Source of the DNA: Dermatobacter hominis
Lineage (GTDB): Bacteria > Actinomycetota > Acidimicrobiia > Acidimicrobiales > Microtrichaceae
DNA: 64,000 nt
Direction of reading: 5' to 3'
Assembly: GCF_020715685.1 (NCBI RefSeq)
Contig: NZ_CP085840.1
Coordinates: forward strand, 1,488,001 to 1,552,000
The notes beneath the pieces are model-generated. The model made no database searches, was not told where the DNA came from, and worked only from the letters and a program-made list of their open reading frames with translations. Numbering within the stretch: position 1 is the stretch's first letter; each line of letters begins with the position of its first letter. Positions 7,691 through 47,386 of the stretch are shown in pieces. The translations under genes and the position numbers were made by a program.

Positions 7691-9264
7691 GACGCGCTCC
7701 CCTCGCCGACGCCGGCGCCGACGGGCACCGACTCGCTCTGGATCATGAGGGCTCCGATCTCGTAGCGGTCCGTCTCGGCGGGGTCGAGGACGCCGACGAC
7801 CTTCCCGGCGTTCAGGACCACGATCCGGTCCGACAGCTCGAGCAGCTCGTCCAGGTCCTCGGAGATGAGCAGCACCCCTGCGCCCGCAGCCCGGTGCTCG
7901 AGCAGCAGCTCCTGGGTGCGCCGCGTCTTGGCGATGTCGAGGCCCCGGCACGGGTACGCCGCGACGACGAGCGACCGGGGCGCCCCGAGCGCCCGGGCGA
8001 GCATCACCCGTTGGATGTTGCCGCCGGACAGGTCGGCCACGACGCGGCTCCCGGCTGCGAGCTCGAGCCCGGTGCCGGCGGCCAGCTCGTCGAGGCGGAT
8101 CTCGACCGCGTCCCAGTCGATGCCCACCCCGGAGCGGAAGGCGCCGAGGTCGTCGAGCGCCACGTGCTCGGCGACGGTCAGGCCCGGGACGACGGCGTCG
8201 GTGATCGGGTCCTCGGGGACACCGGTCGCGCCGTGGGCCATGGCGTCGGTGACGCTGTGGCGGGTGAGCGGCTCGCCCGACATCACGACCGTGCCCTGCT
8301 CGACGGACCGGAGGCCGAGCGCCACCTCGTAGAGCTCGCGCTGGCCGTTGCCGGCGATGCCGGCGACGCCGACGAGCTCGCCGGCCCTCACGTCGACGGT
8401 CACCCCGTCGAGCGCGATGCCGCCGTCGTCGCCCTTGGCCACGACGTCCTGGACGTCGAGCACCCGCGCCGCCCGGTCGTCGACGGCGACCCGCTCGCTC
8501 GCCAGCGGGGCGACCGCCACGCCGACCATGTGCTCGATGAGCTCGGCGTCGTCGAGGGTCCGGTGGTCGGCGCCCTGCAGCACCATCTTCCCGCCCCGGA
8601 GCACCGACACCCGGTCGGCGATCGAGCGGGCCTCGGCGAGCTTGTGGGTGATGATGACGATCGACAGGCCGTCGGCCCGCAGCGAGTCGACCGCGCCGAA
8701 CAGCGCCTCGACCTCCTGCGGCGCGAGCACGCTGGTCGGCTCGTCGAGGATGACCAGCCGGGCGCCGGCCAGCAGCACCTTGAGGATCTCGACCCGCTGG
8801 CGCTCGCCGATCGACAGGTGCCGGACGAGCGCCTTGGGGTCGACCTGCAGGCCGTAGCGCTCCGACGCCGCCGAGATCCGGGCCGCCAGCTCCTTGCGGG
8901 AGAACGTCGGCCCGTGGAGCGGCAGCGCCAGGGCGATGTTCTCGGTGACCGTGAACGCAGGGATCAGACGGAGGTCCTGGAAGACCATGCCGATGCCCGC
9001 CTCCCGGCCGACGGCCGGCGAGCTGATGTCGATCACGGTCCCGTCGACGGCGATCTCGCCCGCCGTCGGTTGGTAGGTGCCGTAGATCATCTTCATCAAC
9101 GTCGACTTGCCGGCGCCGTTCTCCCCGAGGAGGGCGTGCACCTCGCCGACGGCGATCTCGAGGTCGACGGCGTCGTTGGCGACGAGGTCGCCGAAGCGCT
9201 TGGTCAGCCCCCGCACCTCGAGACGGGGCACGCCGGCCTGTGGTGGTCCGAGCTCGGTCGTCAC
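7687..9264 (-). CDS. ABC transporter ATPase with two nucleotide-binding domains, BMP/nucleoside type
   Basis: Duplicated ATPase of 525 residues. Domain 1 has Walker [10 protein letters not shown] (about 47-55), signature [12 protein letters not shown] and Walker B LVILDEP. Domain 2 has the degenerate Walker [10 protein letters not shown], signature LSGGNIQR and an altered Walker B region AAYPCRGLD, as is normal in the NupO/YufO and sugar-importer families. It energises the two permeases encoded next. GTG at 9264 overlaps the TGA of the GntR gene (GTGA), which makes the regulator the first gene of the transcript and suggests autoregulation. Confidence 0.93.
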
Positions 9265-9962
9265 TGCTCCTCCGTTCCCGTCGCCATCCGGGTGATCGCC
9301 CGGGCGACCCGGTCCTCGACCACCGCGATCGAGGTGCCGATGTGCTGCGTGAAGAGCGCCTCGGCCCGGTCGGGCGCCCCTGCGAGGAGCGCCTGGATGA
9401 TCGCCAGGTGCTCGTCGATCGTCGTGTCGATGCGACCGGGGACGAGGAAGTCCTGCATGCGCACCAGGCGGATGCGGTCGTTGACCTGGCGGAGCAGGTC
9501 GACAACGACCGGGTTGCCGGCCGCCTCGGCCAGCCCGAGGTGGAAGTCCTCGTCGTGGGTGACGAAGCCGGGATCCGGCTCGTGGTCGGCCTCCTCGGCG
9601 AGCGCCTGCCAGTCGGCGAGGAGGTCCTCGAGCACCGCGCGGTCGTGGGTGGTGCCGTGGGTGGCGGGCAGCTGCAGGCACGAGCGCTCGAGCAGCGCCC
9701 GGGCCTCGTAGGTGTGGCGCACCATCGAGACGTCGGGGGCGACGGGGCGGAACCCGCCGTCGCTCCAGCGGGTGACGAGGCCCTCGGCCGAGAGCCGCAG
9801 CAGCGCCTCCCGGATCGGCGTGCGGGACACGCCGGCCAGCGCCGCCAACCGCTCCTCGCCCAGGCGCACGTTCAGCGGGAACTCGCCGGCGAGCAGCCGG
9901 CGCTTCAGCTCCGCATACGCGTGGTCGGCGCGCGTGGCCCCCGACAGGACGGCGTCGGTCAC
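9261..9962 (-). CDS. GntR family (FCD/FadR-type) transcriptional regulator
   Basis: DNA-binding regulator of 233 residues. The N-terminal winged helix includes the recognition region [20 protein letters not shown] (about 36-56). The C-terminal FCD domain keeps metal/ligand residues in [18 protein letters not shown] and FTQHIG. It likely represses the transporter and hydrolase genes that follow it and senses a pathway metabolite. The start is GTG at 9962. Three 8-bp repeats of TGTATGCA type lie 17-48 bp upstream (9979-10010) and are the natural operator candidate. Confidence 0.93.
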
Positions 9963-9978
9963 CGCGTCACCGCCCCGC

Positions 9979-10010
9979 CGTATGCAGGTCTGTATGCAGC
10001 GCTGTACACA
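9979..10010. promoter_or_regulatory. Candidate GntR operator: three 8-bp repeats at 12-bp spacing
   Basis: CGTATGCA (9979-9986), TGTATGCA (9991-9998) and TGTACACA (10003-10010) lie in phase at 12-bp intervals. The last two also form an imperfect palindrome of 20 bp centred on AGCGCT (16 of 20 positions match). The site is just upstream of the GntR gene, a typical place for autoregulation. Confidence 0.55.
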
Positions 10011-10153
10011 CGCCGGGGACAGTACGGATGACCCGTTTCGGTGGATGGTCCCGACGGTTTCCGTCGCGTGAACGAACGATCACACGGTCCCCGGCGGCCG
10101 ACCTCGGGCGCGCCGAGACCGCGATGGCGCGGCCCGGCGGGCCCCGGGGCGCG

Positions 10154-17010: not shown

Positions 17011-17016
17011 TACCGT
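17011..17016 (+). promoter_or_regulatory. -10 element TACCGT, leaderless start of a mini-ORF
   Basis: TACCGT ends 6 bases before the ATG at 17023, which opens a 12-codon ORF that overlaps the sixA start. Confidence 0.5.
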
Positions 17017-17022
17017 GGCCGG

Positions 17023-17061
17023 ATGCACGCGACCGCGATCGCACGGCACCGGCCCCGATGA
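17023..17061 (+). CDS. 12-codon leaderless mini-ORF coupled to the SixA gene
   Basis: The ORF encodes MHATAIARHRPR and its TGA overlaps the ATG of the phosphatase gene (ATGA at 17058-17061). The phosphatase ATG itself has no ribosome binding site, so ribosomes starting on the leaderless ATG at 17023 could re-start at 17058. The peptide has His and Arg residues but no recognisable function. The call rests on position and overlap only. Confidence 0.45.
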   Translation: MHATAIARHRPR

Positions 17062-17522
17062 CGCTCTACCTCGTCCGCCACGGGTCGGCCGGCGTCCGCG
17101 ACGACCGCGACCCGCACGACGCCGACCGCCCGCTCGACGAGACCGGCCACCTCCAGGCCGAGCGCCTGGCCGACTGGCTGCGACACGAGTCCCCGACCGC
17201 CGTGCTCAGCAGCCCGCTGCTCCGGTGCCGCCAGACGGTCGAGCCGCTGGCGAAGGTCATGGGCCTCGACGTGGTGGTCGAGGACGACCTCGCCGAGGGC
17301 ACCTCGATCGACGACGCGTGGGGGCTCGTCGAGCGCCTGGCCGGCAGCTCGGCGGTGCTGTGCAGCCATGGCGACGTGATCCCCGAGGTGATCAGCCGGG
17401 CGCAGCGCCGGGGCATGGTCGTCCCCGGCAAGAGCGGCTGCGCCAAGGGCTCGGTCTGGACGCTGCGCCACTGGGACGGCGACACCTTCGCGACCGGCAT
17501 CTACACGCCCGTCCGCGTCTAA
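17058..17522 (+). CDS. sixA: SixA-type histidine phosphatase
   Basis: Small phosphohistidine phosphatase of the histidine phosphatase superfamily, 154 residues. It has the RHG motif at the N-terminus (YLVRHGSAG, catalytic His), the Arg in SPLLRCRQT and the second His in LCSHGDVI. SixA proteins remove phosphate from His in phosphorelay or phosphotransferase proteins; the target here is unknown. Translation probably depends on the upstream mini-ORF through the ATGA overlap. Confidence 0.88.
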   Translation: MTLYLVRHGSAGVRDDRDPHDADRPLDETGHLQAERLADWLRHESPTAVLSSPLLRCRQTVEPLAKVMGLDVVVEDDLAEGTSIDDAWGLVERLAGSSAVLCSHGDVIPEVISRAQRRGMVVPGKSGCAKGSVWTLRHWDGDTFATGIYTPVRV

Positions 17523-41972: not shown

Positions 41973-42260
41973 GTGAGCGCCCAGCCGGCCCCCAGGGACC
42001 AGCCCGTCGACCCCGTGCTCGCGCGGCGAGCGGCCGTGCTGCGATGGTCCGACCTGGGCCAACGGGTCGCCTACCTGTGCTTCGGCCTCGCGGTGGTCGT
42101 GTTCGTCGTGGCCTTCATCGCGCAGTTCCCCGCCTGGACCGTCGTCGTGATCGTCGGGCTGATGGCGGTGGGCTCGGTCCTCTTCGTCCCCGCCGTGATC
42201 TTCGGCTACGCGGCGAAGGCGGCGGAGAAGGAGGAGCGCGGCGAGAGTTCGGGCCACTGA
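41973..42260 (+). CDS. Small membrane protein, unknown
   Basis: A 95-residue protein with two membrane helices (VAYLCFGLAVVVFVVAFIA and VVVIVGLMAVGSVLFVPAVI) and a charged C-terminus (AAKAAEKEERGESSGH). It is not recognised as a named family. GTG at 41973 is preceded by CAATCT at 6 bases, a weak match to the leaderless -10 pattern. It diverges from the FHA gene and converges on the sucrase/ferredoxin-like gene. Confidence 0.65.
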   Translation: MSAQPAPRDQPVDPVLARRAAVLRWSDLGQRVAYLCFGLAVVVFVVAFIAQFPAWTVVVIVGLMAVGSVLFVPAVIFGYAAKAAEKEERGESSGH

Positions 42261-42310: not shown

Positions 42311-43360
42311 CTACGGGACCGGCGACGCCGCCACCGGCTCGACCTCGACGGTGCGATCGACCCGCCACACCGTGTCGACCCCGTACTCCGGGCCGTCGAC
42401 GATCCCGCACGTCGGCGACGGGATGTGGCGGTCGGGGACGACGACCGAGTCGAACGCCCGCAGGGAGCCGTCGGGCAGCAGCGCCGTCGCCCGGACGGTG
42501 GTGGCCATGGTCGTGCGGTCGAAGGCGACCACCTCGACCCCCCGCGCAGCGTCGGCCCAGTCCCACCCGAGCTCGACCAGTCCGGCCCGGTCGGCCGCCT
42601 GCGCCGGACCGCCGGCGAACAGCGCGGTGCCCCGGCAGTGCGCAGCGAGGAGCGAGGGCGGCTCGGCGCGCCGCACCAGCAGGTCGGTGCGCGCCGCGTC
42701 GAGGTGCCCCCAGGCGTAGCCGTCGGGGAACGTGATCGCGGTCGGTGCGAACCGGTGGCCGCCGGTGTGCGAGATGCGCTGGTGGCGGACCTGGGCGCCG
42801 GACTCGGCGAGCACGTGGACCAGGTCCTCGTACATGGAGGTGCCCAGGCTGCCGCAGCACTGGTCGCGGCGACCGTGGGTGCACACCAGCACCTCGGCCG
42901 CCGGGACGTCGGTCGCGCCGTCGATCGCGCCGTCGGTGGCGCCGGGGTCGAACGGCTCGGCGCCGTCGACGGGGTCGAGGCCCAGGACGGCACGGCCGAC
43001 GGCGACCACGTCGGCCTCGTCCACGACCCAGTCCCGCCGCTCGTAGGGGCCGCGCAGCACCCGGCCGTCCACCTCGACCCGGCGGGCCCGATGCTCGGTG
43101 ACCCGTCGGCGACCGGCCGATGCGTCGGCGGCCAGCGGCACCCGCGCCAGCGGTCGCCAGCGCATGCCGTCGCCGGCCTCCACGGCACCGGTCGGTCCGC
43201 CCGCGACCGAGGCGAGCGGCTCCTGGCCCGTCACCTCCCGCTCCCACGGGAGCAGCACGTCGACCACGAGGAAGCCGTCGTACGAGCCGGCCGATCCGAT
43301 CGGGTCCGCTCCCTGCGACTCGTGGAACGGCGCGCACCGGATCCGGGGGAGGTCGAGCAC
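42311..43360 (-). CDS. Sucrase/ferredoxin-like (thioredoxin-fold [2Fe-2S]) protein
   Basis: Protein of 349 residues. The C-terminal half carries VCTHGRRDQCCGSLG and HTGGHRFAPTAITFPDG, with Cys and His arranged as in Suc_Fer-like proteins, which bind a [2Fe-2S] cluster on a thioredoxin-like fold. The N-terminal part is an uncharacterised region with DVLLPWEREVTG. It is probably a redox carrier or a small-molecule reductase; the partner is unknown. GTG at 43360 has TAGCCT 6 bases upstream and no ribosome binding site. Confidence 0.82.
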   Translation of the reverse strand: MLDLPRIRCAPFHESQGADPIGSAGSYDGFLVVDVLLPWEREVTGQEPLASVAGGPTGAVEAGDGMRWRPLARVPLAADASAGRRRVTEHRARRVEVDGRVLRGPYERRDWVVDEADVVAVGRAVLGLDPVDGAEPFDPGATDGAIDGATDVPAAEVLVCTHGRRDQCCGSLGTSMYEDLVHVLAESGAQVRHQRISHTGGHRFAPTAITFPDGYAWGHLDAARTDLLVRRAEPPSLLAAHCRGTALFAGGPAQAADRAGLVELGWDWADAARGVEVVAFDRTTMATTVRATALLPDGSLRAFDSVVVPDRHIPSPTCGIVDGPEYGVDTVWRVDRTVEVEPVAASPVP

Positions 43361-43372: not shown

Positions 43373-43442
43373 CCCCGGGGCTCTGAGCACCCCGCCGGGC
43401 CCCGGGGCCGGTCGTCGTCACCTCGCTGTTGTTACCGTCGGG

Positions 43443-43448
43443 TAACCT
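43443..43448 (+). promoter_or_regulatory. -10 element TAACCT, leaderless start of a mini-ORF
   Basis: TAACCT ends 7 bases before the ATG at 43456, which opens a 21-codon ORF overlapping the TetR start; ggttacc-like symmetry (TTACCGTCGGGTAA, 43432-43445) surrounds it and could be a TetR operator. Confidence 0.5.
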
Positions 43449-43455
43449 GCCCGCC

Positions 43456-43521
43456 ATGGCACGGGTCCAGCTGACGTCCCCTCCGAGCCCGCTCCACGCG
43501 AGCGCACGGGTGCAGCCGTGA
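43456..43521 (+). CDS. 21-codon leaderless mini-ORF coupled to the TetR gene
   Basis: The ORF starts MARVQLTSPPSPLH and ends ARVQP; its TGA overlaps the GTG of the TetR gene (GTGA at 43518-43521). The TetR GTG has no ribosome binding site, so re-initiation after the mini-ORF is a plausible way to translate it. No function is recognisable in the peptide. This is the same layout as the mini-ORF before sixA. Confidence 0.45.
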   Translation: MARVQLTSPPSPLHASARVQP

Positions 43522-44096
43522 GGATGCCCGCCGCCCAGCGGCGCACGCAGCTGCTCGAGACCGCGGTCCACGTGTTCGCCGAGCACGGCTACCACGCCGC
43601 GTCCATGAACGACGTCGCCGAGGCCGCCGGGGTCACGAAGCCGGTCCTCTACCAGCACTTCAGCTCCAAGCGGGAGCTGTTCGTCGAGCTGCTCACGTCG
43701 ATCGGCAACGAGCTGCGCGACACGATCGCGAAGGCCACCGCCGACGCCGCCGGCCCGCGCCAGCAGGTCGAGCAGGGCATGCGGGCCTACTTCCGGTTCG
43801 TCGACCAGCAGACCGACAGCTTCCGCGTGCTCTTCGGCGCCGGCGCCCGCCGCGATCCCGAGTTCGCGTCGTTCGCCCGCGCGGTCGAGGAGTCGATCGC
43901 CGACTCGATCGCCGAGCTCATCGTCGTCGAGGGCCAGCCGGCGGCCCACCGGGACCTGCTCGCGCACGGCATCGTCGGCATGACCGAGACGGCCTCGCGA
44001 CACTGGCTGGCCCACGACCGGGTGCCCGACGTCGACACGCTGGCCTCCCAGCTGTCGCGGCTGGCATGGTCGGGGATGCGCGGGCTCGACGGCTGA
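43518..44096 (+). CDS. TetR family transcriptional regulator
   Basis: Regulator of 192 residues. The N-terminal domain is a textbook TetR helix-turn-helix (RRTQLLETAVHVFAEHGYH, then MNDVAEAAGVTKPVLYQHF and SSKRELF). The C-terminal ligand/dimer domain contains YFRFVDQQTDSFRVLF. Start is GTG at 43518; ATG at 43524 is the alternative. The palindromic sequence near 43432-43445 in its own promoter is a candidate autoregulatory site. The target and ligand are unknown. Confidence 0.92.
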   Translation: MRMPAAQRRTQLLETAVHVFAEHGYHAASMNDVAEAAGVTKPVLYQHFSSKRELFVELLTSIGNELRDTIAKATADAAGPRQQVEQGMRAYFRFVDQQTDSFRVLFGAGARRDPEFASFARAVEESIADSIAELIVVEGQPAAHRDLLAHGIVGMTETASRHWLAHDRVPDVDTLASQLSRLAWSGMRGLDG

Positions 44097-46879: not shown

Positions 46880-47386
46880 ATGCTGGCGCAGGTGCCCATC
46901 CCCGCCCAGGTGCCGATCCCCGCCCAGGTGCCGATCCCCGCCCAGGTGCCGATCCCCGCCCAGGTGCCGATCCCCGCCCAGGTGCCGATCCCCGCCCAGG
47001 TGACGGTCGAGTTCGACCAGAGCACGAGCATCTTCGGCGGACCGGTCGAGACCGCGATCGCGGTGGCGCTGGCAGTCGTGATCGCCGTGTCGCTCTGGCG
47101 CGTGTTCACCAAGATGGGCCAGCAGGGCTGGACCGGGATCGTGCCGGTCCTCAACTTCGTCTCGATCGGGGTGCTGTCGGGACGGGCCTGGTGGTTCGGG
47201 GTGGTCACGATCGTCCCGTGCATCGGGCTCGTGTTCGTGATCCTGCTGCTCCACGACCTGGCCAAGCTGTTCGGCCACGGCGTCCCGTTCACGATCGGCC
47301 TGCTCGTGCTGCCGTTCGTCTTCCTGCCGGTGCTCGCCTTCGTGCCGTCCCAGCGCTACGTCGGACGTCGGGTCCGGGTCTTCTAG
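46880..47386 (+). CDS. Small membrane protein with N-terminal VPIPAQ repeats
   Basis: A 168-residue protein. Residues ~4-41 are six in-frame VPIPAQ units encoded by an 18-bp tandem repeat. The rest has three membrane helices (GPVETAIAVALAVVIAVSLW, VVTIVPCIGLVFVILLL, LLVLPFVFLPVLAFV) with WRVFTKMGQQGWTGIVPVLNF between them, as in DUF5684-type signal-peptidase-like membrane proteins. Function unknown. The start is fixed by the -10 element 8 bases upstream; a start after the repeats (GTG at 47000, VTVEF) would give a protein without them. The stop shares CTAG with the convergent YihY gene. Confidence 0.75.
   Translation: MLAQVPIPAQVPIPAQVPIPAQVPIPAQVPIPAQVPIPAQVTVEFDQSTSIFGGPVETAIAVALAVVIAVSLWRVFTKMGQQGWTGIVPVLNFVSIGVLSGRAWWFGVVTIVPCIGLVFVILLLHDLAKLFGHGVPFTIGLLVLPFVFLPVLAFVPSQRYVGRRVRVF
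46889..46996. repeat. 18-bp tandem repeat, six copies, in frame
   Basis: Six units of caggtgccgatccccgcc (first unit with one substitution) at 46889-46996. Length is a multiple of three, so copy-number change alters the protein without shifting frame. There are no spacers. Confidence 0.97.

What the first reader, a model, noticed from the sequence alone, without database searches (positions are those of the whole stretch)
43443..43521. Second example: leaderless 21-codon ORF overlapping a TetR start (GTGA)
The same arrangement recurs before an unrelated gene: -10 element, 7-base gap, ATG, short ORF, 4-base overlap with a start that lacks a ribosome binding site. Two independent cases suggest a general strategy for translating genes behind leaderless mini-ORFs.
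Basis: partly seen in the sequence, partly recalled or inferred. Interest (0 to 1): 0.6.

Follow-up and report, generated by a model that had tools for sequence, protein, structure and literature searches.

The report
Leaderless mini-ORF coupled to TetR gene
A 21-codon mini-gene that probably starts at the very first base of the messenger RNA appears to deliver ribosomes to the overlapping start of a fatty-acid-related TetR regulator gene; the same trick recurs across this actinobacterial genome, but it was already described in mycobacteria.

Summary
In 2.06 Mb of this genome (1,764 called genes), mini-ORFs ending in a 4-base NTGA overlap start 6-9 bases behind a TANNNT 19 times, against 3.9 expected. 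The excess is confined to the coupling frame, and it recurs in one of two other genomes of the order. The 19 downstream genes are unrelated (RelA/SpoT, DapB, ribosomal protein L19 and others), and the mini-ORFs show no codon bias. In the same-genus genome the TetR gene keeps the arrangement although the mini-ORF differs in length and sequence. Most likely a leaderless mini-ORF loads ribosomes that reinitiate at the overlapping start. This is the "coupled" small-ORF architecture reported for mycobacteria in 2015, so it is a new member, in class Acidimicrobiia, of a known kind. It occurs five times in the genome: before this TetR, three acyl-CoA dehydrogenases and a thiolase. Nothing here was measured experimentally.

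The parts
43431..43446 (.). Palindrome GTTACC-GTCG-GGTAAC, probable operator of the TetR regulator; its right arm holds most of the -10 element
   Evidence: Five perfect copies of GTTACCNNNNGGTAAC in the genome and none of the reversed control pattern; at least one copy in 29 of 33 family genomes, control 0; present before about half of the orthologues of this TetR in the family
43443..43448 (+). TAACCT, probable -10 element
   Evidence: TANNNT peaks sharply 6-8 bases before called starts in this genome: 122, 80 and 76 genes against about 2 per bin elsewhere
43456..43521 (+). Leaderless 21-codon mini-ORF MARVQLTSPPSPLHASARVQP*, probable transcription start at its ATG
   Evidence: class enrichment; same-genus L002 has TAACCT-8-ATG, 12 codons and the same GTGA overlap
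43518..43521 (+). GTGA: mini-ORF stop TGA overlapping the TetR start GTG
   Evidence: GTG aligned with the ATG start of about 20 orthologues
43518..44096 (+). FasR-like TetR regulator, 192 aa (TetR_N + TetR_C_46)
   Evidence: clear orthologues in most genomes of the family (about 57-85% identity)
17011..17061 (+). Second window case: TACCGT, 6-base gap, ATG, 12-codon ORF, ATGA overlap with a histidine-phosphatase gene (17058-17522)
   Evidence: the gene's N-terminus MTLYLVRHG fits the family start
9959..10024 (-). Third window case: TACTGT, 9-base gap, GTG, 16-codon ORF, GTGA overlap with a GntR/FCD regulator gene (9261-9962, minus)

Best explanation
RNA polymerase uses TAACCT as its -10 and starts at or next to the A of ATG 43456, giving an mRNA without a 5' leader. 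A ribosome initiates on the 5'-terminal AUG, translates 21 codons and terminates at UGA, which shares bases with the GUG of the TetR gene; the terminating ribosome (or its 30S subunit) steps back one base and reinitiates there. The mini-ORF thus replaces a Shine-Dalgarno site and its peptide probably has no function of its own. Transcription is probably controlled by the TetR protein itself, binding the palindrome that covers the -10 and derepressed by an acyl-CoA-type ligand. Shown by sequence: the anatomy, the genome-wide enrichment, the frame preference, conservation in the one congener, and the shared palindrome. Inferred: transcription start, translation, reinitiation, and autoregulation.
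For: Leaderless starts are common in this genome (TANNNT 6-8 bases before 278 of 1,764 called starts against a background of about 2 per bin). Mini-ORFs ending in NTGA over a gene start peak at the same spacing: 19 vs 3.9, p 4e-8. Mini-ORFs ending elsewhere upstream do not peak ('far' class 5 vs about 6.5 at d 6-8), and the excess is in frame +1 only (25 vs 10.1; frame +2 10 vs 7.8). Replicated in G034, 6 vs 0.36. The downstream genes are real and diverse, several with N-termini exactly at the coupled start that I recognise as typical of their families: DapB VIKVGVFGA, CoaD-like VTTVLYPGSFDP, histidine phosphatase MTLYLVRHG, epimerase MKALITG. Mini-ORFs carry no codon bias (own frame -0.32 log-odds per codon, like the other frames), as expected if only the coupling counts. 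Same-genus L002 keeps promoter spacing, frame and GTGA overlap with a 12- instead of 21-codon mini-ORF. In several other family members the TetR start itself sits at leaderless distance behind the same promoter element (L006, L024, L026) or behind another TANNNT with an N-terminal extension (L004, L005, L009). Precedents: 23 of 220 leaderless small ORFs in M. tuberculosis are RTGA-coupled (PMC4633059); a uORF with an AUGA overlap is required for PPE2 expression (PMC11260477); leaderless bicistronic cassettes work in C. glutamicum (PMC10367133).
Against: No transcription start or ribosome data exist here. About a fifth of such cases are expected by chance. Only one congener was available, and its contig is a draft. 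No enrichment was found in G038 (2 vs 1.5). In other family members the TetR gene has a leader with a Shine-Dalgarno-like site (L019, L022, L023), so a mini-ORF is not needed for this gene in general. In C. glutamicum constructs a Shine-Dalgarno motif in the fore-cistron was also needed for strength (PMC10367133), and it is absent here.
Confidence: 0.75

Rival explanations
1. Chance: the ATG lies at the transcription start and in the coupling frame by accident; the mRNA has a 62-base 5' leader and the TetR GUG is reached by ordinary Shine-Dalgarno-independent initiation.
For: Expected background is 3.9 of 19 cases. Related loci carry leaders of similar length without a mini-ORF (L010, L019).
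Against: Promoter-spacing, frame and NTGA specificity of the class; the congener keeps the arrangement with a different mini-ORF.
Confidence: 0.17
2. Regulatory leader peptide or attenuator: the mini-ORF's codons or peptide sense something (for example an amino acid) and modulate TetR translation.
For: Leaderless cysteine-rich uORFs that may act as attenuators were proposed in mycobacteria (PMC4633059).
Against: No run of any one amino acid beyond scattered serines and prolines; peptide not conserved in the congener, where the mini-ORF is 12 codons long with an unrelated sequence; no codon bias in the class.
Confidence: 0.04
3. The conserved feature is only the palindromic operator; TAACC is kept because TetR binds it, not because it is a -10, and transcription starts elsewhere.
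For: The palindrome is conserved before the gene in relatives with variable distance to the start, and it occurs before four other genes.
Against: At two of those genes (the acyl-CoA dehydrogenases at 1996036 and 4109568) the start codon lies 6 and 7 bases behind the TANNNT in the palindrome's right arm, the spacing of leaderless genes in this genome; so operator and -10 are probably the same bases.
Confidence: 0.04

Closest known systems
RTGA-'coupled' leaderless small ORFs of mycobacteria (Shell et al. 2015, PMC4633059)
   Same: Leaderless RTG start, short ORF (5-50 aa), TGA overlapping the RTG of the next gene, overrepresented genome-wide, coupling conserved while the peptide is not
   Different: Different class (Acidimicrobiia); here inferred from promoter spacing, without TSS mapping or ribosome profiling
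uPPE2-PPE2 AUGA coupling in M. tuberculosis (PMC11260477)
   Same: Short upstream ORF sharing a 4-base stop/start overlap with a gene that lacks a Shine-Dalgarno site; termination-reinitiation supported by reporter experiments there
   Different: That uORF is leadered, has its own Shine-Dalgarno site and is controlled by a B12 riboswitch
Leaderless bicistronic design in Corynebacterium glutamicum (PMC10367133)
   Same: A leaderless short fore-cistron drives expression of the gene behind it; mutating its start codon lowers expression
   Different: Synthetic, and relies on a Shine-Dalgarno motif inside the fore-cistron
FasR, acyl-CoA-responsive TetR regulator of mycobacteria (PMC7382501)
   Same: Best-scoring NCBIfam model and the nearest solved structures by sequence; inverted-repeat operators; lipid genes
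   Different: Scores well below the FasR equivalog cut-off (148.9 of 330 bits); the palindrome here marks beta-oxidation genes, whereas FasR activates fas-acpS

Membership tests
Coupled leaderless small ORFs (Shell et al. 2015) | Small ORF of 5-50 codons starting with RTG | tested here: met
   ATG, 21 codons
Coupled leaderless small ORFs (Shell et al. 2015) | TGA stop overlapping the RTG start of the downstream gene (RTGA) | tested here: met
   GTGA 43518-43521; start supported by orthologue alignment
Coupled leaderless small ORFs (Shell et al. 2015) | Transcript begins at the RTG (mapped TSS) | not testable with these tools
   Only indirect: TANNNT with a 7-base gap, inside the genome's leaderless peak of 6-8
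Coupled leaderless small ORFs (Shell et al. 2015) | Coupled architecture more frequent than expected in the genome | tested here: met
   19 vs 3.9 expected, p 4e-8; replicated in G034, not in G038
Coupled leaderless small ORFs (Shell et al. 2015) | Linkage conserved while the peptide is not (seen in some mycobacterial cases) | tested here: met
   One congener only: L002, 12 codons, unrelated peptide, same spacing class and GTGA overlap
Coupled leaderless small ORFs (Shell et al. 2015) | Ribosome occupancy of the small ORF | not testable with these tools
   No ribosome-profiling data for this organism
FasR (NCBIfam NF053731) | Equivalog score of at least 330 bits | tested here: not met
   148.9 bits, E 1.5e-43: a relative, not a member
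TetR family | TetR_N DNA-binding domain above Pfam's cut-off | tested here: met
   PF00440, 71.2 bits against a cut-off of 24

The most novel reading that the evidence does not exclude
Leaderless fore-cistrons are a deep and general translation-start device of Actinomycetota, not a mycobacterial peculiarity. They drive dozens of genes, some probably essential, in Acidimicrobiia, and let a gene keep Shine-Dalgarno-free expression when indels move its promoter away from its start codon, as the direct-leaderless and mini-ORF forms of this TetR gene in one family suggest.
Probability: 0.4. Interest if true: 0.5.

Novelty: new member of a known kind. Interest (0 to 1): 0.38.

Why it matters
It extends a translation-start architecture shown in mycobacteria to a distant, little-studied class of Actinomycetota, and gives a list of 19 testable genes. 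Gene finders are likely to miss such mini-ORFs and may misplace promoters or starts around them. It also gives this FasR-like TetR a candidate operator and a candidate set of beta-oxidation target genes.

Tried and rejected
Coding potential of the mini-ORF peptides: no codon bias, so a functional conserved peptide is unlikely for the class. TTG/CTG mini-ORF starts were not tested. An earlier TetR start: rejected, because no ATG/GTG/TTG lies in frame between the stop at 43443-43445 and GTG 43518. ATG 43524 as the start: its GAGG abuts the ATG, and the orthologues start two codons earlier. Sigma-70-type promoter and terminator scan: nothing found. Motif controls: TNNNAT gives a flatter spacing count (18 at d 6-9 against 13, 9 and 8 at control spacings) than TANNNT (19 against 3, 3 and 6); TTNNNT, a weaker -10, also rises (14 against 6, 4 and 3). 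Two literature searches, for leaderless genes in Acidimicrobiia and for the palindrome, gave nothing usable.

Full report
What is there. The downstream gene is a 192-residue TetR regulator (TetR_N, TetR_C_46), a relative of mycobacterial FasR (best NCBIfam model, E 1.5e-43 but below the equivalog cut-off; nearest solved structures 6o6p/6o6n). GTG 43518 is the likely true start: orthologues in the family mostly carry ATG at that codon (MRLPA...). No Shine-Dalgarno-like stretch precedes it. The window lies in a 4.66-Mb single-contig genome of 73% GC. Its family includes a bin titled Microthrixaceae, and further matches are titled Acidimicrobiales or Acidimicrobiia; I therefore place it in Acidimicrobiia without naming the species.

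Is it more than chance. I took 2.06 Mb (the window plus five 400-kb blocks) and called 1,764 genes with a codon-usage scorer. TANNNT lies 6, 7 or 8 bases before 122, 80 and 76 called starts, against about 2 per bin at other distances, so leaderless genes are common and TANNNT is a usable mark. I then listed ATG/GTG mini-ORFs of 2-60 codons upstream of genes. Those whose TGA overlaps a candidate gene start as NTGA peak at the same spacing: 19 at 6-9 bases against 3.9 expected (p 4e-8). Mini-ORFs ending far from the start do not peak. Among RTG codons at the leaderless spacing upstream of genes, the frame that allows the overlap has 25 against 10.1 expected, and the other shifted frame 10 against 7.8. 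In 400 kb each of two other genomes of the order, G034 gives 6 against 0.36 and G038 2 against 1.5. The controls are other spacings, other frames and other hexamers in the same sequence, so base composition does not explain the excess.

What the class looks like. The 19 downstream genes have unrelated functions: GntR and other regulators, RelA/SpoT, DapB, ribosomal protein L19, a CoaD-like nucleotidyltransferase, UbiA, a chorismate-binding enzyme, an epimerase and others. Several begin with residues that I recognise as typical of their families exactly at the coupled start. Six of 19 have a Shine-Dalgarno-like stretch before the coupled start, compared with 99 of 201 ordinary 4-base-overlap gene pairs and 9 of 296 direct leaderless starts. 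The mini-ORFs show no codon bias. This fits a device that delivers ribosomes, not a set of functional peptides.

The TetR locus in relatives. The same-genus genome (L002) has TAACCT, 8 bases, ATG, 12 codons and the same GTGA overlap, with an otherwise barely alignable leader. In other family members the TetR start itself sits 7-9 bases behind the palindrome's TANNNT (L006, L024, L026) or behind a second one (L003), or is reached by a leaderless in-frame N-terminal extension (L004, L005, L008, L009), or has a leader with a Shine-Dalgarno-like site (L019, L022, L023). My inference is that the mini-ORF form arose when the promoter-to-start distance grew in this genus.

TAAC is the right arm of GTTACC-GTCG-GGTAAC (43431-43446). 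The genome has five perfect copies and none of the reversed control, and 29 of 33 family genomes have at least one. The copies lie before this TetR, three acyl-CoA dehydrogenase genes (1996036; 4109568, minus; and the one behind 1558212, minus) and an acetyl-CoA acetyltransferase-like thiolase (behind 3396122, minus); these enzyme names are my reading of the translated sequences, not a profile search. At two of the dehydrogenases the start codon is 6 and 7 bases behind the TANNNT inside the palindrome. I infer an autoregulatory TetR that represses beta-oxidation genes, with an acyl-CoA-type ligand by analogy with FasR (PMC7382501). No binding was tested.

Comparison with what is known. Shell et al. 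2015 (PMC4633059) described leaderless small ORFs in mycobacteria whose TGA overlaps the downstream RTG, called them 'coupled', found 23 of 220 against 32 of 1,000 random sites (p < 0.0003), and showed a case in which the linkage but not the peptide is conserved. A 2025 review (PMC12548453) repeats the idea that a short ORF can deliver a ribosome to the next gene. Termination-reinitiation at a uORF AUGA overlap is supported experimentally for PPE2 (PMC11260477), and a synthetic leaderless fore-cistron works in C. glutamicum (PMC10367133). The finding is thus a new member of a known kind. I found no earlier report for Acidimicrobiia, but the library holds only open papers.

Limits. The gene caller is home-made, the -10 is a three-base pattern, 44% of the genome was sampled, and transcription start and translation are inferred.

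Noticed in passing
window 43431-43446; genome C1 1558212, 1996012, 3396122, 4109578 (L252-L255): GTTACC-N4-GGTAAC occurs five times in the genome, before the TetR gene, three acyl-CoA dehydrogenases and a thiolase: a candidate fatty-acid-oxidation regulon. Three further one-mismatch sites (2665797, 2667896, 2883025) were not examined.
   Followed up: partly
L021 (G017), about 40-130 bases upstream of the TetR start: The operator is followed by several direct repeats of a short unit, roughly CAGCCCGGTAACAA, each carrying the right half-site GGTAAC: an apparent tandem amplification of an operator half.
   Followed up: no
window 46880-47000 (ORF 46880-47386, +): The N-terminus of a small, apparently membrane protein consists of about seven tandem copies of a hexapeptide (QVPIPA).
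   Followed up: no
L024, L038, L043, L047, L056, L057, L060, L070, L086: In many Acidimicrobiia the sequence just before the TetR homologue looks like the end of a small gene resembling window 41973-42260, in some cases with its stop codon at or overlapping the TetR start (L047, L057, L086). In the window that small gene is separated from TetR by an opposite-strand sucrase/ferredoxin-like gene (42311-43360).
   Followed up: no
genome C1 236332-237167, 1007656-1008473, 1068202-1068779, 4296779-4297722 and others (one search list): Further leaderless mini-ORFs coupled by NTGA before a MmyB-like regulator, dapB, a coaD-like gene and an epimerase gene; candidates for the same reporter test.
   Followed up: partly
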